Origin: an uncultured Lachnospiraceae bacterium
GTDB lineage: Bacteria > Bacillota > Clostridia > Lachnospirales > Lachnospiraceae
Assembly: GCA_949502235.1 (NCBI GenBank)
Contig: CATBDC010000043.1
Location: 1-32,851 of the forward strand
Reading direction: 5' to 3'
DNA: 32,851 nt
Made by a program: the position numbers and the translations under genes. The stretch's first letter is position 1, and every line of letters begins with the position of its first letter. Positions 193 to 11,499 of the stretch are shown here, piece by piece. Under the pieces are notes generated by a model. That model worked only from the letters and a program-made list of their open reading frames with translations. It did not search any database and was not told the DNA's origin.

Positions 193-1386
193 ATGAACAG
201 GCGAACAGAAATTAATGGAATTCCTGAAAAATATGGAAAGGATGATTTGAACAATCTTCTAGCCACATTTGTATATGACATTGCGTATAAACTGTCATTT
301 AAAAAAGTAACCTCAAAGATTGCATATGAGAATCTCCATGTAATAGCTATAGAAAATCATTATCACCCTGTAATAACACTTCTGCACGAGAGGTCATGGG
401 ATAATGCGGACAGGCTTCCACTAATCTATGAAATATTAGGCATTACCGATAAGAATTACCAGTCTCTTATAAAGAAATGGGCGATACAAACGATTGCCGT
501 CCTCTTTAATTCTGACGATACGCCTGTTACCGCAGAGGGCGTGCTTGTGCTACAGGGAAAACAAGGTATCGGAAAGACACAGTTTTTCAGACATCTTGCA
601 ATTAAGGACAGCTTTTTCAAAGGCGGAGCTACTTTGGATATGACAAATAAGGACAGCCTGATGTCAGCCACAAAAGTATGGATATGCGAGCTTGGGGAGA
701 TAGACAGCACTACGAAAAAAGAACAGTCCGCACTCAAAGCCTTTCTTACAGAGCAGACAGACCGTTACCGGGAACCATACGCGCGCTGTGAAACGGTTCG
801 TCCACGTAGAACCTCTTTTTGCGGAACTGTAAACCCACAGGATTATCTACGGGACGAAACCGGAAACCGCCGATTTTGGACAATACCCATTGAGAAGATA
901 GACTTAAAAAGAATTTTTGAACTCTCTCCTGAATGGTACGTACAGTTTTGGAGGCAGATACTCACCATATACAAAAGCAACCCGAAAGAATATCTTCTTA
1001 CAGAGAAAGAAAAGAATTTTATCAATTGTAATAACCAACAATACGAACAACTGCTCTTTGGGGAAGATGAATTTCTGACTTGTGCAGACTTCCAAGCCGA
1101 CAAAGCATTATGGAAATGGCAGACGGCGGCTGAAATCGCAAAGGTTCTCAATGAAGAATTTAGAAGCCTTCATATTTCAAGTGCAAGAATCGGTAAGTTA
1201 CTTAACAGAATTGAGGAACGGCAACATATCATGTTTGAAAGAAAAACAGTAAAAGGAAAACGCCTCATACTATGTCCTCCAATAGCAAATACAACAGCCA
1301 ATAATACCTATCAGATTTCTGATTTACCAGATTACAAATTGCCCTCCTTACAGATTTTATCTGACGAAGAACCCATAATCTTCTAA
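193..1386 (+). CDS. VapE-like (virulence-associated E) helicase, 5' end damaged
   Basis: P-loop ATPase of the virulence-associated E family, found as a replication helicase in phages, phage satellites and integrative elements. The Walker A motif GKQGIGKT is at residues 122-129, a Walker B-like segment KVWICELGEI at 161-170, and the conserved NRRFWTIPI follows further on. The ATG at 193 has no good ribosome site. The same frame is open back to base 46 and encodes family-like sequence (KFSITVTRLILDAIGV, about 139-186), but it has no usual start codon there and is closed by TAA at 43-45. The gene is therefore probably a 5'-truncated or nonsense-mutated copy of a longer protein. It is followed by a large inverted repeat. 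Confidence 0.75.
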   Translation: MNRRTEINGIPEKYGKDDLNNLLATFVYDIAYKLSFKKVTSKIAYENLHVIAIENHYHPVITLLHERSWDNADRLPLIYEILGITDKNYQSLIKKWAIQTIAVLFNSDDTPVTAEGVLVLQGKQGIGKTQFFRHLAIKDSFFKGGATLDMTNKDSLMSATKVWICELGEIDSTTKKEQSALKAFLTEQTDRYREPYARCETVRPRRTSFCGTVNPQDYLRDETGNRRFWTIPIEKIDLKRIFELSPEWYVQFWRQILTIYKSNPKEYLLTEKEKNFINCNNQQYEQLLFGEDEFLTCADFQADKALWKWQTAAEIAKVLNEEFRSLHISSARIGKLLNRIEERQHIMFERKTVKGKRLILCPPIANTTANNTYQISDLPDYKLPSLQILSDEEPIIF

Positions 1387-1394
1387 ACTCATAT

Positions 1395-1495
1395 AGGGTG
1401 CAGAGTGTAAGATATGTCATATATAAATGATAAAAAATCAGTATGAGGTTATACTATATTTGAAATACTACCTCACCTCTTACACTCTGCACCCT
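1395..1495. repeat. 18-bp perfect inverted repeat
   Basis: Arms at 1395-1412 and 1478-1495 are exact reverse complements (AGGGTGCAGAGTGTAAGA on the left) around a 65-base AT-rich loop. A shorter nested pair (TGAGGT at 1444-1449, ACCTCA at 1470-1475) sits inside. It begins nine bases after the helicase stop. It could be a terminator, a replication-origin element used by the helicase, or a relic of another insertion. Confidence 0.7.
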
Positions 1496-1727
1496 TTTCT
1501 AAGCAAAATCTTCTCGTATATCATAAACAGATTCTCCTTACATAAATTCCGCCATAACTGATAAAATGAGCATATAAAATGTATCCATAAAACTCCAAGT
1601 CAGATGTTCTGCTGTGACTGATGTACGAACAGTTTTCGTTACTTAAACAGCATAAAAGATACGATTTTCTCTTATTTTATCCTCATACTTATGTAAGGTT
1701 TTCTCATATGTATTTTCTGTTATACTC
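1496..1727. other. AT-rich spacer, no gene seen
   Basis: No open frame with a plausible start and ribosome site was found. The stretch lies between the helicase repeat and the end of the minus-strand toxin operon. No strong terminator hairpin is evident. Confidence 0.5.
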
Positions 1728-1901
1728 TTATACCTTCTGTAATCTGCTTTCTTCAATCTCCTTTAGAAACGCACGTCCTTTCTGATTGTAGTAGTCTATC
1801 CGTTCCTGGGAGGTCATATCTTTTGTGACAAAGTAATTATATTCACGCAATTTGTGAATATCTTCAATCGTAAAATTGGGGCTTAGAATCGGTTTTTCCA
1901 T
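1728..1901 (-). CDS. Small antitoxin-like partner of the PIN protein (57 aa)
   Basis: A 57-residue protein beginning MEKPILSPNFTIEDIHKLRE, rich in charged residues and without cysteines. It lies directly downstream of the PIN-domain gene. Another in-frame ATG at 1907 overlaps the PIN stop codon (ATGA). GAGGA is placed seven bases before the ATG at 1901 and only one base before 1907, so 1901 is preferred. Overlap, size and charge fit the antitoxin half of a PIN toxin-antitoxin pair. The order is toxin first, the reverse of most VapBC operons. The function is inferred from context; no DNA-binding fold can be assigned by eye. Confidence 0.7.
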   Translation of the reverse strand: MEKPILSPNFTIEDIHKLREYNYFVTKDMTSQERIDYYNQKGRAFLKEIEESRLQKV

Positions 1902-1903
1902 AA

Positions 1904-2380
1904 TCATTCCTCACTTTCTAATAATACGGACGGATTCAGAATTTCAATCGGTCTGTATCCTTTCAAATTGGTAATCGCACGTACTCCGCGAATCGTTTTG
2001 ATATTGACTATATGCTTAAAGTTCCATGAAATAATACAATCGCACTCGTTCACAACAGCCGCTCCGATATGCTGACAATCATCATAACTTTTTTGCGTCA
2101 AAATTCCCATATCTATAATTTGCTGTGCAACCTCCGCGACATCATTAGAAATATCAAGGGTCGTAAACGAAATCTGTCCCAAATACTCCCTTAACTGGCT
2201 CCTTTTCGGTTCGGGGCAGGCTGATATTTCTTCTAATGTAACTGTAGACACATATACCTCATAAATCCCCTTACGGAACAACTCCCATAGCTGTAACGTA
2301 TCAGCCATTTTTGCAGGAACATCTTCCTGCATTAAGTGACTAACAACAGACGTATCTAAATATACTTTCAATCTCCGCAT
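1904..2380 (-). CDS. PIN-domain protein, VapC-like toxin
   Basis: PIN-fold ribonuclease candidate of about 158 residues. The first strand carries VYLDTSVVSHL with the first metal-binding Asp. Further acidic positions are in LEEIS, in YDDCQHIGAA and in the CDCIISWNFKHI segment, matching the usual constellation of PIN metal ligands. The frame also has an ATG at 2386, but AGGAG lies about eight bases before the ATG at 2380 and almost touches the earlier one, so 2380 is preferred. A promoter is seen upstream. Co-transcribed with the 57-residue partner, it probably cleaves RNA and acts as the toxin of an element-stabilizing module. A housekeeping RNase role is less likely in this context. Confidence 0.8.
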   Translation of the reverse strand: MRRLKVYLDTSVVSHLMQEDVPAKMADTLQLWELFRKGIYEVYVSTVTLEEISACPEPKRSQLREYLGQISFTTLDISNDVAEVAQQIIDMGILTQKSYDDCQHIGAAVVNECDCIISWNFKHIVNIKTIRGVRAITNLKGYRPIEILNPSVLLESEE

Positions 2381-2405
2381 TACCATCTCTCCTATCTTTA
2401 CTTAA

Positions 2406-2434
2406 AGTATAATATAAGTCTTTAAAATCCTCAA
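2406..2434 (-). promoter_or_regulatory. Promoter of the PIN toxin operon
   Basis: On the minus strand, TTGAGG (2429-2434) and TATACT (2406-2411) are separated by 17 bases, about 25 bases before the PIN start codon. Confidence 0.55.
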
Positions 2435-2476
2435 CTGCTTACTGCTCACTCTGTTCACATCAACATTTAATTTTCT

Positions 2477-2788
2477 TTATTCTATGCTAATTCCAAGCAG
2501 GATATTTACCGCTTTTTGCAATTCCTTTTTCTCTCTGTATGCCTGTATCATCTTCCATTCTGTATCGCTCAATTCCTCTTTCGACAGCTTAACACCTAAT
2601 AATGAACTTGGAGAAACCTTTAAGGCATAGCAAATTTCAGCAAGCATATCGGCATCCGGTCTGTTAATTCCTTGTTCCCAATTTGAAACGCGTCCATTAC
2701 TGACGCCAAGCTGCTCTGCCAGTTGTTTCTGGCTTATTCCAAGCTCCTCTCTGTATTTACGGATTCGATTTCCGATTTCGTATTTCAT
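2477..2788 (-). CDS. XRE-family helix-turn-helix regulator (103 aa)
   Basis: The N-terminal 60 residues form a Cro/C1-type helix-turn-helix: IRKYREELGISQKQLAEQL, then the recognition-helix region GVSNGRVSNWEQG. The C-terminal 40 residues are helical and charged, as in small phage-type repressors. It is divergent from a second XRE gene across a 150-bp region that holds two identical inverted repeats. It probably controls itself, the neighbouring operon, or both. It could also relate to the PIN operon downstream, from which it is separated by about 90 bases with a promoter between them. Confidence 0.85.
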   Translation of the reverse strand: MKYEIGNRIRKYREELGISQKQLAEQLGVSNGRVSNWEQGINRPDADMLAEICYALKVSPSSLLGVKLSKEELSDTEWKMIQAYREKKELQKAVNILLGISIE

Positions 2789-2809
2789 ATATTCACCGCC
2801 TTTTGACTA

Positions 2810-2838
2810 ATTATACATTCAAAACTTTACAAAGGCAA
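2810..2838 (-). promoter_or_regulatory. Promoter of the leftward XRE gene
   Basis: On the minus strand, TTGCCT (2833-2838) and a perfect TATAAT (2810-2815) are separated by 17 bases. The operator at 2845-2861 begins seven bases upstream of the -35 box. Confidence 0.7.
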
Positions 2839-2844
2839 TTACAA

Positions 2845-2861
2845 ATCAAGATATTCTTGAT
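2845..2861. promoter_or_regulatory. Operator 1 (ATCAAG-N5-CTTGAT)
   Basis: Perfect 6-bp arms around five bases. It is the same motif as 2906-2922, 61 bp away. It lies between the two divergent -35 boxes. Confidence 0.65.
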
Positions 2862-2867
2862 ATTCCG

Positions 2868-2897
2868 TTGACGAAAACAGAATATCTGTGATATTAT
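2868..2897 (+). promoter_or_regulatory. Promoter of the XRE-glycosylase operon
   Basis: TTGACG (2868-2873) and TATTAT (2892-2897) are separated by 18 bases. A further imperfect palindrome (AATATC-TGT-GATATT, 2881-2895) fills the spacer. Operator 2 covers the expected transcription start. Confidence 0.65.
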
Positions 2898-2905
2898 GTA
2901 TTAAA

Positions 2906-2922
2906 ATCAAGAAATCCTTGAT
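2906..2922. promoter_or_regulatory. Operator 2 (ATCAAG-N5-CTTGAT)
   Basis: The second copy of the operator motif, placed just after the -10 box of the rightward promoter, so a bound repressor would block initiation. Both half-sites are identical to operator 1; only the five central bases differ. Confidence 0.65.
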
Positions 2923-2938
2923 AGAAAGAAGTGATAAT

Positions 2939-3175
2939 ATGAAAGTTTATGAAAAAGTCCGGGAGTATATTGTTGCTAACGGATACAAGCAGGTAGCAAT
3001 CGCTAAGAAAGCGGGAATACCAAACGCAACTTTTAACGCCATTATGAACGGCAAAAGGACGTTGTATGCAGACGATTTATCTTCTATCTGCATTGCGCTA
3101 AACGTAAGCCCCGAATTATTTATCGAAATTAAAAATCCATGTAAAAACGTTACAGACAGAATGGAGGTGATTTGA
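2939..3175 (+). CDS. Small XRE/Cro-type regulator (78 aa)
   Basis: The compact helix-turn-helix protein starts MKVYEKVREYIVANGYKQV, with the recognition region KKAGIPNATFNAIMNGKR and the C-terminal SSICIALNVSPELFIE typical of Cro-like regulators. The frame extends to 2888, but the ATG at 2939 follows an AAGAAG purine stretch and leaves the -10 box and operator 2 in the leader, so 2939 is chosen. It is the first gene of an operon with the glycosylase-like gene (one base gap). It probably represses its own operon and competes with the divergent XRE protein at the twin operators. Confidence 0.8.
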   Translation: MKVYEKVREYIVANGYKQVAIAKKAGIPNATFNAIMNGKRTLYADDLSSICIALNVSPELFIEIKNPCKNVTDRMEVI

Positions 3176-3176
3176 A

Positions 3177-4025
3177 GTGATAAACAAAATAGCAGAAGAA
3201 AAGGCAAGCGTCATCTACATAATCGAACAGCACTTAAAGGAGGAACTGTTAAAACATACACCCGAAAAGCTGTGGGAAGAAAGCTTCATAAAACGGCAGA
3301 TTGAAAGACGGCAGAATGGAAAAGCATTTACAACAACAGACCATATCCGCGCTATGGTGTATTCTATGTTGAGTTCTGGTATGTCATGGGACAAGGTCGC
3401 AAAGAATATGAATCCCGAAACAAAGTGTATTACTTCTGTCGATAAAATCTTTTGCGATTATGATTTAGAGCAACTTTTAAAGCTTACTCCAACACAACTA
3501 AGAGACAGCATAAAAGAAATCCATTGTGCAACCCAATCTACGCTGAAACAGATGGAAGCTCTGCTTACAGTCAATGTTCCTAAGCTCCTGTCAATAGAAA
3601 AAACATATGGAACAATTGATACTTTCTATCAAAAGTTTATAGAGATTGATAATACTCTGAAAACTCTCATTATACTTTTATCTGCTACAGAAAGTACCAG
3701 TAAATTAGAGCAGATGAATGTAGCACTGGTATGTGAATATCTGCGGAATATAGGACACGATATACCGAAACCAGACAGGCATATTTGTAGGATTCTAAGC
3801 AGTGAGTATCTTGCGTTTTCAGATAAAAAGAACGTAACGCCTTTTGAAGCGTTCGACATTATAACAGAACTATCAAAAATGACAGGGAAATCAGCCGCAG
3901 AAGTGGATTATATTCTTTGGTCTTATTGTGCAGATGGATATGGAGAAATCTGCACTTTAAAGAATCCTAAATGCAAAACATGCAAAGCAAAAGAAATTTG
4001 TAAAAATACTTTTAAGGAGAATTGA
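3177..4025 (+). CDS. Endonuclease III-like (HhH-GPD) DNA glycosylase with [4Fe-4S] cluster
   Basis: A 282-residue protein starting at GTG, eight bases after GGAGGTGA. The C-terminus has four cysteines (C259, C266, C269, C275) in the spacing C-X6-C-X2-C-X5-C, exactly that of the endonuclease III/MutY cluster. IPKPDRHICRIL (about 196-207) aligns with the segment of HhH-GPD glycosylases that holds the catalytic Asp, here D200. I do not see a clear glycine-rich LPGVGxKTA hairpin with the lyase Lys, so a monofunctional glycosylase is more likely than a bifunctional one. The N-terminal 50 residues are extra relative to endonuclease III. Position in a regulated element operon next to a membrane coiled-coil protein suggests a role beyond housekeeping repair. 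Family call fairly firm; substrate unknown. Confidence 0.75.
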   Translation: MINKIAEEKASVIYIIEQHLKEELLKHTPEKLWEESFIKRQIERRQNGKAFTTTDHIRAMVYSMLSSGMSWDKVAKNMNPETKCITSVDKIFCDYDLEQLLKLTPTQLRDSIKEIHCATQSTLKQMEALLTVNVPKLLSIEKTYGTIDTFYQKFIEIDNTLKTLIILLSATESTSKLEQMNVALVCEYLRNIGHDIPKPDRHICRILSSEYLAFSDKKNVTPFEAFDIITELSKMTGKSAAEVDYILWSYCADGYGEICTLKNPKCKTCKAKEICKNTFKEN

Positions 4026-4026
4026 T

Positions 4027-5034
4027 ATGAAAAAAGAACAAGAATTAGAAATTATCACAACAGCATATTTTTTGGAAGAACGTATGAAAGAACTAAATGA
4101 CGGGAAAGCAAAGCTGCGCAATGATAAGCCCCAAAATCCTATAATGCCAACAGAGCCTCAAGAAGAAACAGAAATTCTCTCACCAACTCCATACCCGGTT
4201 ATTACTCCTGAAAAATCAGTAATACCAATAGTACCTGATAGTTGTAAACACGTACTACATATGGCATTAGTTATTCTTGCAGTTTCCTTTATTGTTTCCA
4301 TTTTTATTCCTGCGATTGGAATGCCTTGCTCTACAATTGCCTTTTGGGGTGGAATCATATATATATTTAAAGGGAGAAAAGCAGAAAAGAAAAGATTAGA
4401 AAATGAATCTGTAGAACGTCAGAAAAATTCTTTAGCTTATAAACAAGCATGTCAAGAAATAGATGAGCAAAACCGTATTCGTCAAACGCAAAAAGATGAA
4501 GAATTACATAACAAATATCTGACAAGATATGAAAACTACAAAAATGCAATGAAACAGTATGAAATAGAATTAAAAGAATACCAAGAACAGGAACTTCCAG
4601 AATGGGAGAAGGAAAATGCCGCCTTATCTGTTACTTTGGATGAAACCAAGTCCGCTTTACAGGAAATATATAATAAAAATGTTATTCCAGCCCCATATCG
4701 CAAAAGAGAAGCACTGTGTTATCTTGCTACATTTCTTAACAGTTCTCAATATGATTTGAAATTTGCAATTGAAAATTTCAATCAATATGTAACTCAATGT
4801 AAGCAAGACATGCAAATTACGCTCCAAGAAGCACAGTTGCGGATAATGCGCGAAACGTTAAGTCAACAACAATATTCTAACTGGCTCAATGAACAAATAC
4901 TTGATATAACCGAGCAGGGAAATTCTACTCTAAACAGTATTCATAACTGGCAAAAAGCTGATATTACTTATCGTACATATGTATCAGTTAAAAATCAAAG
5001 AGCCAAAAAGAAAGCTGCGAAGTCAAGGAGATAG
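4027..5034 (+). CDS. Membrane-anchored coiled-coil protein of unknown function (335 aa)
   Basis: I do not recognise the family. The N-terminal 70 residues are charged and then proline-rich (about 32-70). Two hydrophobic segments follow at about 77-97 and 99-115. The rest is Lys/Glu/Gln-rich and predicted coiled coil (about 118-230 and 245-320), ending in a very basic tail RAKKKAAKSRR. The start ATG follows AAGGAG by eight bases, and the gene begins one base after the glycosylase stop, so the two are translated together. The layout suggests a membrane sensor or anchor with a long cytoplasmic rod. The basic tail might contact nucleic acid. Confidence 0.7.
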   Translation: MKKEQELEIITTAYFLEERMKELNDGKAKLRNDKPQNPIMPTEPQEETEILSPTPYPVITPEKSVIPIVPDSCKHVLHMALVILAVSFIVSIFIPAIGMPCSTIAFWGGIIYIFKGRKAEKKRLENESVERQKNSLAYKQACQEIDEQNRIRQTQKDEELHNKYLTRYENYKNAMKQYEIELKEYQEQELPEWEKENAALSVTLDETKSALQEIYNKNVIPAPYRKREALCYLATFLNSSQYDLKFAIENFNQYVTQCKQDMQITLQEAQLRIMRETLSQQQYSNWLNEQILDITEQGNSTLNSIHNWQKADITYRTYVSVKNQRAKKKAAKSRR

Positions 5035-5113
5035 TTCTTGTGTACATCCAGTATTCAGCAATTTGCTTTACCATATAAAAACAAACATCTCTTTCCATTT
5101 ATACCGTATATTT

Positions 5114-5155
5114 GAAAAACCAACTGTAAAATTATCGTCTTATGGTTGGTTTTTC
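5114..5155 (+). terminator. Terminator after the XRE-glycosylase-coiled-coil operon
   Basis: Perfect 11-bp arms (GAAAAACCAAC, 5114-5124; complement at 5145-5155) with a 20-base loop, the 3' arm ending in a T run. Confidence 0.65.
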
Positions 5156-5178
5156 TTATCAGAATATAAACGAAACAG

Positions 5179-5207
5179 TTGACTTCTTTTCTTTTATATC
5201 TTACAAC
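5179..5207 (+). promoter_or_regulatory. Promoter of the small serine recombinase
   Basis: TTGACT (5179-5184) and TACAAC (5202-5207) are separated by 17 bases. The start point would fall just before the LexA-like palindrome. Confidence 0.5.
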
Positions 5208-5215
5208 AAAAAATA

Positions 5216-5227
5216 GAACATATGTTC
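5216..5227. promoter_or_regulatory. LexA/DinR-type SOS box (GAAC-N4-GTTC)
   Basis: GAACATATGTTC is a perfect 12-bp palindrome that fits the Gram-positive LexA half-sites GAAC-N4-GTTC. It lies between the expected transcription start and the ribosome site of the recombinase gene. Confidence 0.55.
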
Positions 5228-5251
5228 ATTTTGACGGAATGGAGAAAAGAA

Positions 5252-5839
5252 ATGATTTATGGATATGCAAGATGTTCCACTAATGAGCAATTACAGGACA
5301 TCAACAGACAAGTACGAGAACTGAAACAGCAAGGAGCAACAGACACAACAATCTATTTGGAATACGAAAGCGGTACGAAAATCAACAGGGCAGAACTGCA
5401 AAAATTATTATCTGCTGTTCAGACGGGGGATACAATTTTCGCTACCGAAGTCAGCAGAATCACAAGAAGTACAAAACAGCTCTGTGATATTATCGAATTT
5501 GCAAAGGAGAGAAAAATCAAATTAGTGCTTGGAAATTTTGTTGTTGACTGTACAAAGGAGCTTGACCCCATGACAGAGGGTATGCTGAAAATGATGGGCG
5601 TGTTTGCAGAACTGGAGCGAAATATGATAAGCCAGCGAGTAAAAAGCGGAATGGAGAATGCAAGAGCAAAAGGAAAGAAAATCGGCAGACCTGCTACTAC
5701 TGCTGATAATATCCCTAACATTTTTTATAAACATTATCCCAAATACCAAAAGGGAGAGTTAAATAAAAAAGAATTATCAAGGCTCTGTTCTCTTTCTTAT
5801 CCAACTGTTTATAAATACTTACAAATTGTGGAGGGTTAA
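5252..5839 (+). CDS. Small serine recombinase (resolvase/invertase family)
   Basis: A 195-residue protein. The N-terminal catalytic domain begins MIYGYARCSTNEQ, with the nucleophile Ser9 in the canonical Y-A-R-x-S-T context. The conserved active-site segment ATEVSRITRS and the E-helix region AELERNMISQRVKSGMENAR follow. The C-terminal 45 residues form a helix-turn-helix (KELSRLCSLSYPTVYKYL). The frame extends to 5222, but that start lies inside the LexA-like box and lacks a ribosome site, while GGAGAAAAGAA precedes the ATG at 5252. It could resolve multimers or invert a segment of the element. A 57-residue protein follows directly on its stop codon. Confidence 0.9.
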   Translation: MIYGYARCSTNEQLQDINRQVRELKQQGATDTTIYLEYESGTKINRAELQKLLSAVQTGDTIFATEVSRITRSTKQLCDIIEFAKERKIKLVLGNFVVDCTKELDPMTEGMLKMMGVFAELERNMISQRVKSGMENARAKGKKIGRPATTADNIPNIFYKHYPKYQKGELNKKELSRLCSLSYPTVYKYLQIVEG

Positions 5840-6013
5840 ATGTGTGAATATGGACAGAGCCGGAGCGCCGCCTGTGCTTCGGCAATATTGGAGCATTTTT
5901 ATCATAACGGTATTTCTGTATTTGCAGATTACCGTTATTATCCGAATCAGATGGTATTTCACAAGGTATTTGACGCATTGAATCATTTGAAAAGAACATA
6001 TCAGCACAAGTAA
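5840..6013 (+). CDS. 57-aa Cys-X5-Arg protein (truncated tyrosine-phosphatase-like)
   Basis: The ATG abuts the recombinase stop codon, with GGAGG a few bases before it. The protein starts MCEYGQSRSAA, a Cys-X5-Arg-Ser phosphate-binding loop as in protein tyrosine phosphatases, and continues with a helix and ISVFADYRYYPNQMVFHKVF. In such enzymes the loop is preceded by a beta strand and other catalytic residues, which are absent here because the protein begins at the loop itself. It is therefore either a 5'-truncated remnant or a minimal phosphate-binding peptide. The frame is intact to a normal TAA, and the sequence looks protein-coding. Confidence 0.6.
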   Translation: MCEYGQSRSAACASAILEHFYHNGISVFADYRYYPNQMVFHKVFDALNHLKRTYQHK

Positions 6014-6060
6014 AACACAGCGAAAAAGTGGAAAAGTGAATAGAAATAGAAATACATATT

Positions 6061-6088
6061 AAGAACAGTCCTTACGGGCTGTTCTTTC
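6061..6088 (+). terminator. Terminator after the recombinase-phosphatase-like pair
   Basis: AAGAACAG (6061-6068) pairs with CTGTTCTT (6079-6086), with an extra CC/GG inside, followed by a short T-rich stretch. Confidence 0.65.
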
Positions 6089-6369
6089 GTTACAAAGTAG
6101 TTGCATCAAACCATCTATACAAAATACACAAAACATACATTCTTATATTGTTCAATGTAAATATATTTTTATTATAATTTCATCATTAATTTATGCAAAA
6201 AGTCATAAAAATGTATCTCCGGAGCTAAATTTTTTTTGAGAGTCTGTAATCGTTATATATAGGGTATTTCAAGCAACGGAGGTATCCCTATATGTACAAT
6301 AGTAGTTAAAAAATGAGAACAACTTAAAGAACATTTAAAATCGTAAACTATACAGAAAGGATGAATCAA
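6089..6369. other. AT-rich leader region upstream of the recombination genes
   Basis: No gene is seen. It contains a T8 run at 6231-6238 and a weak hairpin (ATATAGGG 6257-6264, CCCTATAT 6286-6293) with GGAGG in its loop. The hairpin could act on the leader of the small gene that follows, but no known riboswitch fold is recognised. Confidence 0.4.
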
Positions 6370-6657
6370 ATGACTATGAACAAACAAGTTGTTCTCTCCG
6401 AAGAAACTTCTCTTATCACACTTCTTTATGGAAATGCTGAATACGACAAGCCATTTCAAAATATGAATGAAATAAATAAGCTTAACAGGAAAAAATTTAT
6501 GAATCACAAGGAATACAATCATGTGGAACAGGAACGAAACAATATGCACATAATACTGGAATTTCCAAAAGAACCGGAGAAAGAAGAACATATAAAAAGA
6601 GAAGTGAAAGGAATTCTCTCTAATATTCTTCAGGAGCACATAACAAAAATTTCTTAG
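6370..6657 (+). CDS. Small protein upstream of the large recombinase (95 aa)
   Basis: The charged protein has no cysteine and ends in a helical segment (HIKREVKGILSNILQEHI). Three nearby ATGs are possible (6361, 6370, 6376); AAAGG touches the first and is nine bases from 6370, so 6370 is chosen. Its place before the large serine recombinase, and the C-terminal pattern of a short strand, a charged turn and a helix, recall the TnpW-like small proteins of Tn4451-type elements. The resemblance is too weak for a firm name. It might regulate excision. It is separated from the recombinase by 75 bases. Confidence 0.6.
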   Translation: MTMNKQVVLSEETSLITLLYGNAEYDKPFQNMNEINKLNRKKFMNHKEYNHVEQERNNMHIILEFPKEPEKEEHIKREVKGILSNILQEHITKIS

Positions 6658-6732
6658 TTACTAAGAGACAGCAAAAATCATTCCGCTTTCTCTTTACAAA
6701 AATAATTAAAAATTACAGAAAAGGAGACACAT

Positions 6733-8454
6733 ATGAATACAAATAAAAATTTACTTTCAGGAGAATTTCATAAAAAACGAATCAGAATCTTGTTACGTGT
6801 AAGTTCAGACCAACAATTAGAATCTGACGGAGATTTAACCGTACAAAGACAACTTATTATGGAGTATGTAAAATCTCATTCCGATTGGATTTTAGACAGC
6901 AAGGAGTACTTTGAAGGAAGCAACAGCGGATATAAAAATTCTGTTGCAGACAGGGAAATTTTACGGGAGGCATATCATGATGCCGAAAACCACGAATACG
7001 ATATATTAGTTGTATACAAAGACGACCGAATCGGGCGAAGAATGTGGGAAATAGGCAGTTATATCATGTCTTTAAAAAATCTCGGCGTAGATGTATATAC
7101 AGTAAAAGACGGCTGTATTTCTCCGGGAAATGACGATATTATGGGACAGATGATGTTAGCTTTGCGATATGGAAACGCACAGAAAAGCAGCGCTGATACA
7201 GGAATGAGAGTAAAAGACACCGCAAAAAAATTAGTTCAGTCAGGAAAATTTATGGGAGGGAAAGCTCCCTATGGATACAATTTAGAACATTCCGGCGAAA
7301 TCAGCAAGCATGGACGGGCTTTAAAGCATTTAGTCATATCTCCCGAACGTTCAGATGTTGTTAAACACATCTATGAATTGTCATTAAACATGGAATATGG
7401 CTCGACTAAAATCGCAAAAACATTGAATACAGATGAACGATATAAAAACCTTGCGCCGAACGATGTTTGGAAAAGCGGAACAATCACCAGTATCCTCACC
7501 AATCCGATCTATGCAGGCTATACCGCCTACAACCGCAGAGAGAGCTTAAGCGGAAGACACCGCAATTTAGACAGCAGTGAATGGATTCTTTCAGATAAAC
7601 CCAATCCTGACCTCGTAATCATTGATGAAGATACATGGAAAAGAGTACAGAAGAAACGCGAACTAAGAAGCAATAAGTACACGAAATCTCTGAAAAATCA
7701 AGATGTAACCGTACTGAAACGAAACGACGGTATGCTGTCTCTCGTAGATGTCCTATACTGCGGGTACTGTGGCTGTAAGATGGTAAACGGCAGTAAATAC
7801 AATTACTGGACCATCAAAGGAACCGGAGAACGAAGAACAAGCAAAATAGCCATTTATAAATGTCAGAATGCCTGGCAGGGTGTGCCTCACGATAAGACAA
7901 AGCAATACAGGGCAGATGTGATTGAACCGATTGTATATGAGGCATTAGCCGAGTATATCAGCAAGTTACAGGAGAATGAGAACATTTATGAACAGATTAC
8001 TGCAAATAACAATGTAGAAAAAAAGAGAAAAGAACAAGATTTAGAAACGGCAAAAAAAGAGCTTGAAAAAATCAGGCGTGACATCCATATCATGGAAGAA
8101 CATATTCCCGAAGCCATGACAGGAGAATATGCGTTATCATTAGAAAAACTGAATCGCCTTATCGACAAGAAAACCGAACAGGAGAAAGAACAAATGTCAG
8201 TAGTACAAGAAAAAGAAACAATATTACAGAACACCACTATTACCGCAAAGGATTGGGAAGATATCAGACATCAGATACCAACCTGGAAAGAAATGTTTCT
8301 CCATGCAGATACAGCTACGAAACGCGTACTGGTAAATAAACTGATTGAACGTATTGATATCACCAGAGAAAGGCTGGTTGTCCGTTTTAAAATCAGCTTA
8401 GACGAGTTCCTGCCCCAGTCCCGAATCAGTAATAACGAAGTGGTACAGGAATAA
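6733..8454 (+). CDS. Large serine recombinase (TnpX/TndX type)
   Basis: A 573-residue integrase/excisionase. The catalytic domain is at about 15-155, with the nucleophile in LLRVSSDQQ (Ser24) and VVYKDDRIGRRM. The recombinase domain follows from about 165, with FMGGKAPYGY and the SGTITSILTNPIYAGYTAYN motif. The zinc-ribbon region has C343-X2-C346 and C377, and where a fourth Cys is usual there is His386. A long coiled coil (about 425-500) precedes the C-terminus. AAGGAG lies six bases before the ATG. It is the last gene of the element: its final codons lie in sequence that continues as the host peptidoglycan-binding gene in another frame. It should catalyse the integration that produced this junction. 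Confidence 0.93.
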   Translation: MNTNKNLLSGEFHKKRIRILLRVSSDQQLESDGDLTVQRQLIMEYVKSHSDWILDSKEYFEGSNSGYKNSVADREILREAYHDAENHEYDILVVYKDDRIGRRMWEIGSYIMSLKNLGVDVYTVKDGCISPGNDDIMGQMMLALRYGNAQKSSADTGMRVKDTAKKLVQSGKFMGGKAPYGYNLEHSGEISKHGRALKHLVISPERSDVVKHIYELSLNMEYGSTKIAKTLNTDERYKNLAPNDVWKSGTITSILTNPIYAGYTAYNRRESLSGRHRNLDSSEWILSDKPNPDLVIIDEDTWKRVQKKRELRSNKYTKSLKNQDVTVLKRNDGMLSLVDVLYCGYCGCKMVNGSKYNYWTIKGTGERRTSKIAIYKCQNAWQGVPHDKTKQYRADVIEPIVYEALAEYISKLQENENIYEQITANNNVEKKRKEQDLETAKKELEKIRRDIHIMEEHIPEAMTGEYALSLEKLNRLIDKKTEQEKEQMSVVQEKETILQNTTITAKDWEDIRHQIPTWKEMFLHADTATKRVLVNKLIERIDITRERLVVRFKISLDEFLPQSRISNNEVVQE

Positions 8455-8455
8455 G
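8425..8455. other. Element-chromosome junction (attachment site region)
   Basis: From 8441 the second frame reads WYRNKGYDFTITSSTAFD, which is host protein sequence, while the recombinase frame reads to its stop at 8454 through the same bases. The exact crossover cannot be fixed without the empty site. A GA dinucleotide, the core used by TnpX/TndX enzymes, is present at 8449-8450. Confidence 0.65.
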
Positions 8456-9028
8456 GGCTATGATTTTACCATTACCTCCTCCACGGCCTTTGATCATAAG
8501 TGGATACCGGAACGTAATTTCTATAATACTATATCCGTGATTGTAGATGAACTATTTTCCAACTACTTATCCCGGCCCAATGTAAGGCAGCCGATTTTGA
8601 CACAATACTGCGATGGAAGACAGGTTCAGTGTCCCAACTGGATGACCCAGTGGGGCTCTAAGGCTCTCGGTGACCAGGGCTACAGCCCTATCCAGATTCT
8701 GCGGTATTATTACGGGGACAATATGTACATCAATACTGCTGAGGCCATCTCCGGTATTCCTTCCTCCTGGCCCGGCTACAATCTGACCCAGGGCTCCACC
8801 GGCGATAAGGTACGCCAGATGCAGGAGCAGCTTGCTGTAATCTCCGGCGCCTATCCTGCAATTCCAAAAATCACTGCTGACGGCATCTACGGCCCTGCAA
8901 CTGCGGCCGCTGTAAGAAAATTCCAATCCGTGTTCGGGCTGCCTCAGACAGGAATTGTTGATTATCCCACCTGGTACAAAATCTCTGAAATCTATGTAGG
9001 AGTCTCACGAATTGCAGAACTAGTATAG
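8441..9028 (+). pseudogene. 3' part of a peptidoglycan-binding protein gene, split by the element
   Basis: The frame runs from the junction to TAG at 9026-9028 and encodes 195 residues. The first part (GYDFTITSSTAFDHKW ... YCDGRQVQCPNWMTQWGSKALGDQGYSPIQILRYYYG) matches a family of clostridial SpoIID-like cell-wall proteins. The last 75 residues (LTQGSTGDKVRQMQEQL ... DGIYGPATAAAVRKFQSVFG) are a PG_binding_1 repeat that binds peptidoglycan. No start codon or ribosome site is found at the 5' edge. An internal in-frame start at 8537 exists but has no ribosome site. The 5' half should lie beyond the far end of the element. Confidence 0.85.
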
Positions 9029-9030
9029 CC

Positions 9031-9071
9031 AAAACAGCCATTCAGCCTATACACAGCAGAATGGCTGTTTT
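9031..9071. terminator. Bidirectional terminator between convergent genes
   Basis: Perfect 13-bp arms (AAAACAGCCATTC, 9031-9043; complement 9059-9071) with a 15-base loop, with A and T runs at the two ends so that it works in both directions. Confidence 0.85.
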
Positions 9072-10448
9072 CTACAAAGCCTTTCCCTTCCATTTCCCTC
9101 TCTTATAAAATATACCTGTAAGCACTGCGCCGATCACCCAGGATATCAGGAGTGAAATAAACAGACATTCCCTTCTTCCCTTTGGAAATGCTTCGCTTTT
9201 TGTGAGTGCCACAAGTCCATATGCCAGCGGAACACGGATAACAATTGTCGTTACAATGGAAATCCACATAGGGGTCATGGTATCGCCCGCCCCTCTCATT
9301 ACACCGGACAGGCTCTGGGTAACTGCCATGGCGATATATCCGACTGCCAGTATCCGCATCATCTGCATACTGAGGGTCACCAGGGATTCTGTATCTGTGA
9401 AAATCCCCATAAGATGATGGCCAAACAGCAGTATCACTGCTGTTATTACCGCCGAGATCCCCATGGCTAAAGCTGTTCCCTGCCTGGCGCCCGCCGTAAC
9501 ACGATCACCCAGCCTGGCACCCACATTTTGGCCGGCATAGGTCGTCATGGCAGTTCCAAAGGAAAAATTCGGGAGCATGGCAAAGCCGTCCACACGCATA
9601 ACAATCACATTTGCCGCAATCAGCTGTTCTCCGAAGCTGTTCGTAAGAGACTGTACCAGAAGCATCGCCATGGACATAATGGCCTGTGTAATACCAGAAG
9701 GAAGCCCCAGACGGACCACATGAGCCACTATCTCCTTATCCAGCTTAAAATACTTTACCTTAAAATCAAAAAAATCAGTCATGGACATGAGCTTCCTGAC
9801 ACACAAGACAGCCGAGATTGCCTGGGCGATAGCTGTTGCCAGCGCAACGCCGCCCACACCCATTTGAAACTTTGCTACAAACAAAAGGTCTAAAACAATA
9901 TTAAGAATACTGGCAACAACAAGATAAATAAGAGCCGATACCGAATCCCCAAGTCCCCTTAAAATGCCGCACAGAATATTATAATAGGCCATGCCTGCAA
10001 TGCCGAGAAATAAAATTCGCAGATATGATGTACACCATTCCAGAATACTTTCCGGCGTATTCAAAAGAACAAGGAGCGGTCTTGCCGCTACCGTTGCCGT
10101 CACCATAATAAATACCGAAGATATAAAAGTAAGTACAATTGTATTTCCGATTGTTACAGAAAGCTCCTCCCGCCTGCGTGCTCCCAGGTACTGCGAAACC
10201 ATAATTCCGGCGCCCACACTGATGCCGATAAAAAGCACAAGAAGGAGATTTAAAATCGGCCCGGCACTCCCAACTGCCGCCAGGGCATTATCCCCCACAT
10301 ATTTCCCTACTACAACACTATCCACCGTATTATAGAGCTGCTGGGCGATATTACCCAAAAGCATGGGCAGTGTAAAAATCAAAATCTTCTCCCAGGGGCG
10401 GCCTTCCGTCATATCCACCGCCGCAAATATCCTCTTTAGTTTTTCCAT
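9072..10448 (-). CDS. MATE-family multidrug/metabolite exporter
   Basis: A membrane protein of about 458 residues with the 12-helix MATE layout. The first helix carries ILIFTLPMLLGNIAQQLYNTVDSVVVGKYVG, the standard N-lobe start of the DinF/NorM-like group, and the second half repeats it (LGLPSGITQAIMSMAMLLVQ). It exports drugs or metabolites by Na+ or H+ antiport. The frame extends to 10493, but GGGG lies seven to eight bases before the ATG at 10448. It follows rseP closely on the same strand and may be read from the same transcript, although it has no functional link to it. Confidence 0.9.
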   Translation of the reverse strand: MEKLKRIFAAVDMTEGRPWEKILIFTLPMLLGNIAQQLYNTVDSVVVGKYVGDNALAAVGSAGPILNLLLVLFIGISVGAGIMVSQYLGARRREELSVTIGNTIVLTFISSVFIMVTATVAARPLLVLLNTPESILEWCTSYLRILFLGIAGMAYYNILCGILRGLGDSVSALIYLVVASILNIVLDLLFVAKFQMGVGGVALATAIAQAISAVLCVRKLMSMTDFFDFKVKYFKLDKEIVAHVVRLGLPSGITQAIMSMAMLLVQSLTNSFGEQLIAANVIVMRVDGFAMLPNFSFGTAMTTYAGQNVGARLGDRVTAGARQGTALAMGISAVITAVILLFGHHLMGIFTDTESLVTLSMQMMRILAVGYIAMAVTQSLSGVMRGAGDTMTPMWISIVTTIVIRVPLAYGLVALTKSEAFPKGRRECLFISLLISWVIGAVLTGIFYKRGKWKGKAL

Positions 10449-10464
10449 TTTCATCCCCACTAAT

Positions 10465-11499
10465 TTAATTGAAAAACACCCGTCTGATGTCATTAAACAT
10501 AATAAATACCATAAGAACCATTAAAAGCGCAATTCCTACCATATGGACATACCCTTCCTTCTCCGGCGGAACACGTTTTCTTCTTACTGCCTCAACAAAT
10601 AAAAACACAAGCCTTCCCCCGTCCAGAGCCGGAAGAGGAAGAAGATTCATCACTCCTATATTTGCAGATAAAAGAATGGCAATATGGATAAGCTGTATAA
10701 CAACTGCAAACACTCCGTAAGACCGGCTCTCCTTATACGTATCATCAACCATGTCTACAATTCCTACCGGTCCCGACATCTGATCAATGCCGACCTGGCC
10801 TGTAAGAAGCATCTTAAGACTGTCTATCGTTATGTTAATCCAGTATTTCACCTGATAAGCCCCATACTGCATAGCAGTAAGAATATTTGCCTTTGTATAG
10901 GCACCGCCGCCGATTCCGAACCAGTAATAGCCAAGCTCTTCATCCATCACCGGCGTAAGGACTGCTGTATGCTTCTTACCGTCACGGAGATACGTAATCT
11001 CTGTTCTCTCTCCCTGATGGATCTGGTTATAGAACGTAATCTCCCTGAAAATATGAATCCTCCTGTCTCCCATGCGAAGAATCGTATCTCCCTCTTTTAG
11101 CCCTGCCTCCTCTGCCGGATACCCATTTTCAACGGAACTGATTACCGGCCTGTCATACCCGGTCATCAGGACAAGGATTACTGCAAATACAAAGGCCAGT
11201 ATAAAATTAAATACCGGTCCTGCCGCAATAACTGATATTCTTGCCCATACTGATTTGTTATTAAAATTCCCGGGAGAATCTGTCCTTTCCTCATCCTCTC
11301 CCATAGCACAGAAACCGCCGATAGGGAACAGATGGACTGCATACCGGGTTCCCTTATATTCCTTCGAATATAAGGTCGGCCCCATTCCTAAAGCAAACTC
11401 CTCTACATCAATTCCGTTTTTCTTTGCAAGAATAAAATGTCCGAATTCATGAAAAAGTACAATAAAGCTGAAAATCAATAACGCTAATATAATTCCCAA
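10465..11499 (-). CDS. rseP: Site-2 intramembrane zinc protease RseP/RasP
   Basis: A 344-residue protease that cuts anti-sigma factors and signal-peptide remnants within the membrane. Zinc-binding HEFGH is at residues 17-21 in the first helix, a PDZ domain at about 115-185, and the third ligand motif LDGGR at 292-296. There are four hydrophobic helices. The start is a TTG at 11499, with AGGAGG 11 bases upstream. It ends the conserved run pyrH-frr-uppS-cdsA-dxr-rseP. The length is typical of the Firmicutes form with a single PDZ domain. Confidence 0.95.
   Translation of the reverse strand: MGIILALLIFSFIVLFHEFGHFILAKKNGIDVEEFALGMGPTLYSKEYKGTRYAVHLFPIGGFCAMGEDEERTDSPGNFNNKSVWARISVIAAGPVFNFILAFVFAVILVLMTGYDRPVISSVENGYPAEEAGLKEGDTILRMGDRRIHIFREITFYNQIHQGERTEITYLRDGKKHTAVLTPVMDEELGYYWFGIGGGAYTKANILTAMQYGAYQVKYWINITIDSLKMLLTGQVGIDQMSGPVGIVDMVDDTYKESRSYGVFAVVIQLIHIAILLSANIGVMNLLPLPALDGGRLVFLFVEAVRRKRVPPEKEGYVHMVGIALLMVLMVFIMFNDIRRVFFN

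What the first reader, a model, noticed from the sequence alone, without database searches (positions are those of the whole stretch)
2939..5034. Candidate undescribed three-gene system: XRE regulator, [4Fe-4S] DNA glycosylase, membrane coiled-coil protein
A tightly coupled operon (one-base gaps) in mobile DNA joins a Cro-like regulator, an endonuclease III-like protein with all four cluster cysteines and Asp200, and a two-helix membrane protein with long coiled coils and a basic tail. A glycosylase under repressor control beside a toxin module and recombinases would suit an anti-phage or anti-plasmid role against modified bases. This role is inference.
Basis: partly seen in the sequence, partly recalled or inferred. 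Interest (0 to 1): 0.75.

Follow-up and report, generated by a model that had tools for sequence, protein, structure and literature searches.

The report
Mobile-element base-removing enzyme, probably anti-phage
A small piece of mobile bacterial DNA carries an unusual enzyme, with the marks of an iron-sulphur protein, that probably cuts certain bases out of DNA; relatives of this enzyme, but not of the gene behind it, often sit among known anti-virus genes, so it may be a so far undescribed kind of bacterial antiviral enzyme.

Summary
In detail: three genes with one-base gaps (2939-3175, 3177-4025, 4027-5034), three operator-like repeats upstream, a hairpin terminator downstream. Gene 2 is a divergent HhH-GPD protein with four cluster cysteines and Asp200 but without the lysine of endonuclease III/OGG2: probably a monofunctional glycosylase. 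It is no displaced housekeeping copy; the genome has a separate nth gene. The operon is cargo of a serine-integrase element (about 9.4 kb in its sister copy), inserted at the same site in two genera; same-genus genomes show the empty site. The 'three-gene system' is only partly supported: gene 3 follows in 2 of 4 close relatives (both the same element), other genes in the other two, and gene 3 has kin without a glycosylase. The glycosylase family is rare and patchy. Of 9 more distant loci, 6 have defence-type neighbours (Qat, CBASS with Pycsar, type I R-M, GmrSD, PDC-S35, a GajB-like helicase); six nth-type control loci showed no named multi-gene system, but one strong candidate-model match. 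The window's own sub-clade shows only one REase_II and one mad3 match. Best reading: an anti-phage or anti-element base-excision enzyme, working like Brig1-3 from another fold. Activity, substrate and structure are untested.

The parts
2843..2864 (.). operator-like repeat 1, AAATCAAGATATTCTTGATATT
   Evidence: the repeat finder
2874..2895 (.). operator-like repeat 2 (73% identical to repeat 1), overlapping the second hexamer of the promoter-like match
2904..2925 (.). operator-like repeat 3 (82% identical to repeat 1)
2868..2897 (+). promoter-like match TTGACG-18-TATTAT ahead of gene 1
   Evidence: 11 such matches in the region against 11.2 expected from shuffles
2477..2788 (-). divergent CI-like HTH regulator (103 aa)
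   Evidence: HTH_3 4.5e-17; counterpart by position and sequence in L015 7308-7628
2939..3175 (+). gene 1: Cro-like HTH regulator, 78 aa
   Evidence: counterpart in L015 6908-7174
3177..4025 (+). gene 2: divergent HhH-GPD protein with [4Fe-4S]-type cysteine motif, probable glycosylase, 282 aa
   Evidence: PDB chain 9o02 at 4.9e-06 with the family profile; hhalign probability 79.5 with nth; PADLOC OGG 7.2e-08 over residues 190-253
3774..3776 (+). codon of Asp200 in the KPDxH motif, the expected catalytic aspartate
   Evidence: kept in 13 of 13 rows; aligned with the nth aspartate
3951..4001 (+). cluster loop Cys259, Cys266, Cys269, Cys275
4027..5034 (+). gene 3: membrane protein with long charged regions and basic tail, 335 aa
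   Evidence: homologue in L015, 42%; distant kin L018 and L072
5114..5155 (+). hairpin followed by T-rich sequence, probable end of the operon
   Evidence: fold z -5.05; inverted repeat I15
1904..2386 (-). PIN-domain toxin-like gene
   Evidence: PIN_3 5.2e-06, 27.7 bits against a cut-off of 27
1728..1907 (-). 59-aa ORF overlapping the PIN gene by 4 bases, antitoxin-like by position only
193..1386 (+). VapE-like replication gene of the element
   Evidence: PF05272 6.5e-53
5252..5839 (+). small serine recombinase (resolvase/invertase type)
   Evidence: PF00239 1.7e-35
6733..8454 (+). large serine recombinase, the probable integrase
   Evidence: PF07508 2.5e-17
8435..8445 (+). right attachment core ACGAAGTGGTA (10 of 11 bases of the empty-site core ACGGAGTGGTA)

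Best explanation
Gene 2 is a monofunctional DNA glycosylase of the HhH-GPD superfamily, carried as cargo by a small site-specific integrative element, which protects the cell (and the resident element) by removing particular, probably modified, bases from incoming phage or element DNA and leaving abasic sites. Shown by computation: the operon, its repeats, the element and its empty sites, the superfamily, conservation of Asp200 and the four cysteines, absence of the lysine of bifunctional enzymes, a separate nth gene, and the defence-type neighbours of part of the wider family. Inferred: glycosylase activity, lack of lyase activity, a modified-base substrate, an anti-phage effect, and induction through the CI/Cro-like switch. 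Gene 3 is more likely an exchangeable neighbour than an obligate partner.
For: The HhH-Asp segment matches 8-oxoguanine glycosylase/lyase chains (9o02, 4.9e-06 with the family profile); the cluster loop matches endonuclease III chains weakly (0.06) and PF10576 just under its cut-off in L028 (0.0013). Asp200 and four Cys in 13 of 13 rows. The lysine of chain 9o00 aligns with residue 183: Ala in 10 of 11 family rows, Pro in one, Asp and Ala in the two distant rows; no row has Lys at 182 or 183. Neighbours outside the window's sub-clade, 6 of 9 loci: L030 QatC, L017 PDC-S35, L029 GajB-like UvrD helicase, L016 MkoA-like helicase; L017 REase_I, L056 CBASS cyclase/E1-E2/JAB/effector and Pycsar, L028 MTase_I and SoFic; L016 GmrSD domains. 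At E up to 1e-30, 44 ORFs around L016, L017, L030 and L056 matched 59 PADLOC families (25 shown, among them QatA, QatC, QatD, E1-E2, cyclase, REase_I, MTase_I, PycC, SduA), against 12 families for 63 ORFs around six nth-type genes of the same four genomes. Patchy: 1 of 6 genomes of the genus, 4 strong of 397 in the family draw. Precedent for defensive base excision: Brig1 and Brig3.
Against: The window's own sub-clade has few such neighbours: 39 ORFs of window, L015, L003 and L055 gave one REase_II and one mad3 match. L031, L034 and L035 gave only reverse-transcriptase, Cas1 and homing-endonuclease models. The controls are not empty: PDC-S08 at 2.7e-129, PDC-M51A 7.7e-36 and PDC-S48 2.2e-31 are candidate-defence models, DEDDh is CRISPR-associated, and the rest are reverse-transcriptase, Cas1 and homing-endonuclease models. 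The scans of lists do not say which protein matched. L035 lies in a phage tail module, which also fits a phage's own use. The L029 helicase match is at superfamily level. No structure, substrate or activity is known; structure prediction could not be run.
Confidence: 0.5

Rival explanations
1. Element upkeep: the glycosylase repairs or sanitises the element's (or a phage's) own DNA during replication or transfer, and the defence company of some relatives reflects shared mobility.
For: Three of four close relatives (window, L015, L055) lie with primase-type genes and recombinases; for L003 none is seen on the held DNA. L035 lies in a phage tail module. Few defence genes near the sub-clade.
Against: The host has its own nth gene. 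Absence of the lyase residue and varied N-terminal extensions (L016, L028, L029, L030, L034) are unlike an ordinary repair enzyme (inference).
Confidence: 0.2
2. One reading: the membrane protein is the obligate effector or anchor of the glycosylase, both under the HTH regulator.
For: One-base gaps and a shared terminator; same trio in L015 of another genus; L030 has a gene that looks membrane-bound by eye just downstream.
Against: Gene 3 is missing in 2 of 4 close relatives, where a 334-aa protein without predicted membrane stretch (L003) or a 943-aa collagen/LRR lipoprotein-like protein (L055) follows. Kin of gene 3 without a glycosylase seen nearby in L018 and L072. Both trio cases are one element at one site.
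Confidence: 0.13
3. Toxin-like or abortive use: the glycosylase attacks host DNA when repression is lifted by infection.
For: CI/Cro-like layout with three repeats; an HTH-type gene stands divergently next to the glycosylase or its gene 1 in 4 of 4 close relatives (only the window's was scanned against Pfam, the others are judged by sequence).
Against: Such regulators are usual in integrative elements (recalled) and need not be antitoxins; nothing shows action on normal bases.
Confidence: 0.1
4. A non-catalytic DNA-binding relative that acts as sensor or regulator.
For: No lysine at the position of bifunctional enzymes in 13 of 13 rows.
Against: The aspartate is kept in 13 of 13 rows; monofunctional HhH-GPD enzymes lack the lysine as a rule (recalled).
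Confidence: 0.07

Closest known systems
Brig1 / Brig3 anti-phage DNA glycosylases (PMC11078745: start of abstract and passages seen; PMC13160076: abstract and passages seen)
   Same: Proposed working principle: a glycosylase gene found in defence islands that makes abasic sites without lyase activity; Brig3 has an operon neighbour, BapA.
   Different: [quoted passage not shown] gene 2 has no UDG match in Pfam or NCBIfam and belongs to HhH-GPD.
OGG protein of PADLOC (PDLC00910; recalled as an accessory of type IV CBASS, no paper seen that says so)
   Same: Only PADLOC match of gene 2 (7.2e-08) and a match of 4 of 6 other proteins scanned (L017, L028, L029, L030; not L016 nor the distant L032).
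   Different: The match covers 54 to 68 of 215 model positions and leaves out the cluster loop; no CBASS family among the scanned ORFs of the window.
8-oxoguanine DNA glycosylase/AP lyase chains 9o00-9o03, 3fhf, 3knt (OGG2 type, recalled)
   Same: Best match in the PDB sequences, over the HhH-Asp segment.
   Different: No lysine at the aligned position (9o00 has Lys there, 9o02 Ser); extra C-terminal cysteine motif; the N-terminal half resembles other members more.
Endonuclease III (Nth) and MutY
   Same: Cluster motif and aspartate; hhalign probability 79.5 with six nth proteins.
   Different: No catalytic lysine (unlike Nth); the protein ends at the cluster, so no MutY-type C-terminal domain; nth is a separate gene in the genome.
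PabI-type base-excision restriction enzymes (PMC10273834, passages seen)
   Same: Base excision used against foreign DNA.
   Different: Another fold (recalled) and a partner methyltransferase; none matched among the scanned proteins of the element.

Membership tests
HhH-GPD glycosylase superfamily | HhH-Asp segment with the conserved aspartate | tested here: met
   9o02 at 4.9e-06; Asp200 in 13 of 13 rows; aligned to the nth Asp
HhH-GPD glycosylase superfamily | all-helical two-domain fold | not testable with these tools
   structure prediction busy from then on, switched off
Endonuclease III (Nth) | C-x6-C-x2-C-x5-C cluster loop | tested here: met
   window, L015, L003, L055 exactly; first gap of 5 in most other family rows
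Endonuclease III (Nth) | catalytic lysine of the hairpin | tested here: not met
   no Lys at 182 or 183 in 13 of 13 rows
OGG2 8-oxoguanine glycosylase/lyase | catalytic lysine ahead of the aspartate | tested here: not met
   Ala183 at the aligned position
MutY | C-terminal recognition domain (recalled) | tested here: not met
   protein ends seven residues after Cys275; MutY model at 9 bits
Brig1-type defensive glycosylases | uracil DNA glycosylase superfamily | tested here: not met
   no UDG family in Pfam or NCBIfam scans at E up to 1
Brig1-type defensive glycosylases | protection against phages with modified bases | not testable with these tools
   needs phage challenge
Type IV CBASS OGG component (system recalled) | match over the whole OGG model, beside a CD-NTase | tested here: not met
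   partial match; no CBASS family among the window ORFs scanned; L056 lies near a CBASS, one with E1-E2 and JAB
Three-gene HTH-glycosylase-membrane system | all three genes kept together in independent elements | tested here: not met
   2 of 4 close relatives, both one element at one site
Integrative element of satellite type | integrase, primase-type gene, CI-like regulator, defined attachment site | tested here: met
   window and L015
Integrative element of satellite type | no phage structural genes | tested here: inconclusive
   none seen by eye in L015 1262-10616; not all its ORFs were scanned against phage families
Integrative element of satellite type | helper-phage dependence | not testable with these tools
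   experiment needed

The most novel reading that the evidence does not exclude
A second, structurally unrelated lineage of defensive DNA glycosylases: HhH-GPD enzymes with a [4Fe-4S]-type motif that have no lyase residue and turned from DNA repair to excising modified (or otherwise marked) bases from phage DNA, working alone or fused to varied N-terminal recognition domains, and spread by satellite-like elements, prophages and defence islands in what are probably mostly Firmicutes.
Probability: 0.42. Interest if true: 0.75.

Novelty: new variant of a known kind. Interest (0 to 1): 0.5.

Why it matters
The defensive glycosylases that I met in the held papers are of the uracil DNA glycosylase kind (Brig1-3) or the PabI kind. 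An HhH-GPD lineage would show that base-excision immunity arose more than once, and its GmrSD, Qat and CBASS neighbours would give a lead to its targets.

Tried and rejected
Displaced housekeeping copy: rejected. nth matches at E up to 1e-20 were found in 7 of 7 genomes, over the family cut-off in 5 of 7; the G000 gene is under it (201.9 of 211.7 bits) but full-length, with its hairpin Lys and Asp. A second, weaker nth-model match in G000 and four others is presumably mutY; that was not tested.

Invertible segment for the small serine recombinase: no convincing pair of inverted repeats in 2400-6800 or the L015 counterpart. Gene 2 in phages and plasmids: no match. L035 protein in phages: none. 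L030 protein in plasmids: one weak partial match. Gene 3 in viral contigs: none. OGG in type IV CBASS: no text on it found (searches; word finds in two papers), so this stays recalled. DefensePredictor paper: 'glycosylase' occurs once, in a figure legend, as UDG. A search for satellites with serine recombinases gave nothing used.

Dropped before counting: weak hits L002, L007, L008, L009, L014, L025 and L027 were not followed; L013 was fetched with its surroundings (L019) and set aside. L032 and L033 are distant, long-branched rows: used as outer rows, left out of the nine loci, and their neighbours were read by eye only (L032 stands among housekeeping-looking genes). The one genome-contig scan went to a single-protein query and gave one locus. 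Alignment A4, made for structure prediction, was not used.

I had also overcounted the OGG matches and under-reported the control's candidate-model matches. The odds did not need changing.
Full report
What is there. The three genes exist as described, at 2939-3175, 3177-4025 and 4027-5034, with one base between neighbours. A 150-base gap separates gene 1 from a divergent CI-like HTH gene (2477-2788, minus strand). It holds three 22-nt repeats at 2843, 2874 and 2904, spaced 31 and 30 bases, and a promoter-like match at 2868-2897 (11 such matches in the region, 11.2 expected). Behind gene 3 a hairpin at 5114-5155 folds far better than shuffles (z -5.05). So the unit reads as one operon under a CI/Cro-type switch, an inference from layout.

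The carrier. The window has a VapE-like replication gene, a small serine recombinase and a large serine recombinase. L015, from another genus of the same family, has a like set: a primase/helicase-type gene (AAA_25 and an NrS-1 polymerase-type domain, not VapE), two HTH genes, glycosylase, gene 3, an extra cysteine-rich lipoprotein-like gene and both recombinases. Both copies interrupt the same gene for a peptidoglycan-binding protein. In four of five same-genus relatives that gene has an open frame of 428-440 aa; in the fifth (G306) the frame is 133 aa. Comparison with the whole gene in L039 puts the L015 element at 1262-10616, about 9.35 kb, with the 11-base core ACGGAGTGGTA at both ends and at the empty site; the window's right end is at 8435-8445 with 10 of 11 core bases. 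The window is the start of contig C43. The left half of the gene ends on contig C78, followed by about 150 bases that resemble the L015 left end by eye; the core there differs more (8 of 11 bases). Part of the element is therefore not assembled. No phage structural gene was seen by eye in the L015 element; 'satellite-like' rests on content only.

Gene 2. Pfam has no glycosylase match. PADLOC OGG (7.2e-08, residues 190-253), NCBIfam N-glycosylase/DNA lyase (0.0016, 17.9 bits against a cut-off of 183) and, with the family profile, 8-oxoguanine glycosylase/lyase chains (4.9e-06), endonuclease III chains over the cluster loop (0.06) and 3-methyladenine glycosylase I over the N-terminal half (0.085) point to the HhH-GPD superfamily; hhalign with six nth proteins gives probability 79.5. 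In 13 aligned rows (11 family, 2 distant) Asp200 and the four cysteines are kept in all. The lysine of chain 9o00 aligns with residue 183, which is Ala in 10 of 11 family rows and Pro in one; no row has Lys at 182 or 183. The likely enzyme is a monofunctional glycosylase (inference). The genome has a separate nth gene and a second, weaker nth-model match that is presumably mutY.

Relatives. The family is rare. Family draw: 7 of 397 genomes at E up to 1e-3, four of them strong. Phylum draw: 6 of 398 at 1e-6, three close and three distant. Class draw: 3 of 291 at 1e-10. Own genus: 1 of 6. Order of G300: 1 of 146. Class of G495: 1 of 10. Each of these counts holds the query's own or the centre's known hit, and draws overlap. 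Viral contigs gave L028, L029, L034 and one phage seen in several contigs (L035, L036, L037, L074-L076). The genome-contig scan gave L003.

Is it a three-gene system? Four loci form the window's sub-clade (window, L015, L003, L055; support 86/83, under the tool's mark for firm support). In 4 of 4 an HTH-type gene stands divergently beside the module. Gene 3 follows in 2 of 4, and these two are one element at one site. In L003 a 334-aa protein without predicted membrane stretch follows, in L055 a 943-aa protein with collagen (1.4e-12) and LRR_5 (9e-23) repeats. Gene 3 has distant kin in L018 and, with a zinc ribbon, in L072, with no glycosylase seen in the held DNA; it matched in 5 of 397 family genomes at 1e-3, two of them strong, and in 2 of 216 class genomes at 1e-10. 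I conclude that the glycosylase with a nearby HTH gene is the stable unit and that the downstream gene is exchangeable.

Defence company. Outside the sub-clade I count nine loci: L016, L017, L028, L029, L030, L031, L034, L035, L056 (distant L032, L033 and the G543 hits are left out). Six have defence-type neighbours: L030 has QatC (1.3e-99); L017 has PDC-S35 (4.3e-91) and a type I restriction enzyme (3.7e-210); L056 has a CBASS with E1-E2 and JAB and Pycsar proteins; L028 a type I methyltransferase (6.7e-207) and a SoFic-like protein (3.6e-38); L016 GmrSD domains (4.4e-35 and 3.7e-18) and a MkoA-like helicase (6.6e-54); L029 a GajB-like UvrD helicase (3.7e-52), the weakest case. L031, L034 and L035 gave, among 32 ORFs at 1e-30, only reverse-transcriptase, Cas1 and homing-endonuclease models.

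Control. Around six nth-type genes (four nth, two weaker matches presumed mutY) of the four genomes that hold L016, L017, L030 and L056, 63 ORFs matched 12 families at 1e-30: five reverse-transcriptase models, one Cas1, two homing endonucleases, DEDDh, and the candidate models PDC-S08 (2.7e-129), PDC-M51A and PDC-S48. The 44 ORFs around the family genes matched 59 families, 25 of them shown, with several genes each of Qat, CBASS and type I R-M and one PycC, SduA and PDC-S35. The control is small, is not free of candidate-defence matches, and the scans count families, not loci. For the window's own sub-clade 39 ORFs gave one REase_II (1.8e-60) and one mad3 (2.1e-31) match, so the defence case for the window's copy rests mainly on kinship.

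Modularity. Relatives carry different N-terminal extensions: DUF7225 in L030 (1.7e-19), DUF6508 in L028 (2.1e-07), a weak DUF4406 match in L016 (0.072), unassigned ones in L029 and L034. This fits a catalytic domain used with different recognition parts; that is inference.

How it most likely works. An incoming phage or element lifts repression (inferred); the glycosylase removes a certain base, most likely a modified one (inferred from the GmrSD neighbour of L016, a family recalled to attack modified DNA, and from the Brig precedent: PMC11078745, start of abstract and passages seen; PMC13160076, abstract and passages seen), leaving abasic sites that stop replication of the foreign DNA. I put this at about one half. 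Element upkeep is the main rival. Novelty: the principle is known; I saw no paper on this lineage in the searches, which cover openly licensed papers only.

Noticed in passing
window 1728-2386: PIN-domain gene with a 59-aa ORF overlapping it by 4 bases, likely a toxin-antitoxin pair; no PIN-like ORF was seen at the same place in L015.
   Followed up: partly
window 8435-9028 and the end of G000:C78 (L049): A peptidoglycan-binding protein gene is cut in two by the element; four same-genus genomes have the whole gene and show the empty site (L039-L042).
   Followed up: yes
L030 6985-14241: Family member with a DUF7225 extension, 260 bases behind a Qat gene set, with a gene that looks membrane-bound downstream.
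   Followed up: partly
L056 212-11446: A frameshifted family member sits between a CBASS with E1-E2 and JAB and a group of Pycsar-type genes.
   Followed up: partly
L035 5222-9437: Family member inside what looks like a phage tail gene module, just before a tape-measure-like gene; a reverse-transcriptase/homing-endonuclease ORF lies nearby (2409-4223).
   Followed up: no
L031 6333-8395: Family member interrupted by an insertion with two transposase-like ORFs.
   Followed up: no
L080 6187-9228: Piscinibacter plasmid with a weak partial match in an unannotated stretch (7512-9228), near genes annotated as SOS response-associated peptidase (abasic-site binding family, recalled), thermonuclease and UmuD.
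   Followed up: no
L072 3941-7371: Cluster of zinc-ribbon, membrane-type proteins that includes a distant relative of gene 3; an uncharacterised family.
   Followed up: no
window 5252-5839, L015 3370-3972, L055 4430-5050: Small serine recombinase near the glycosylase in three of four close relatives; no convincing invertible segment in the window or L015.
   Followed up: partly
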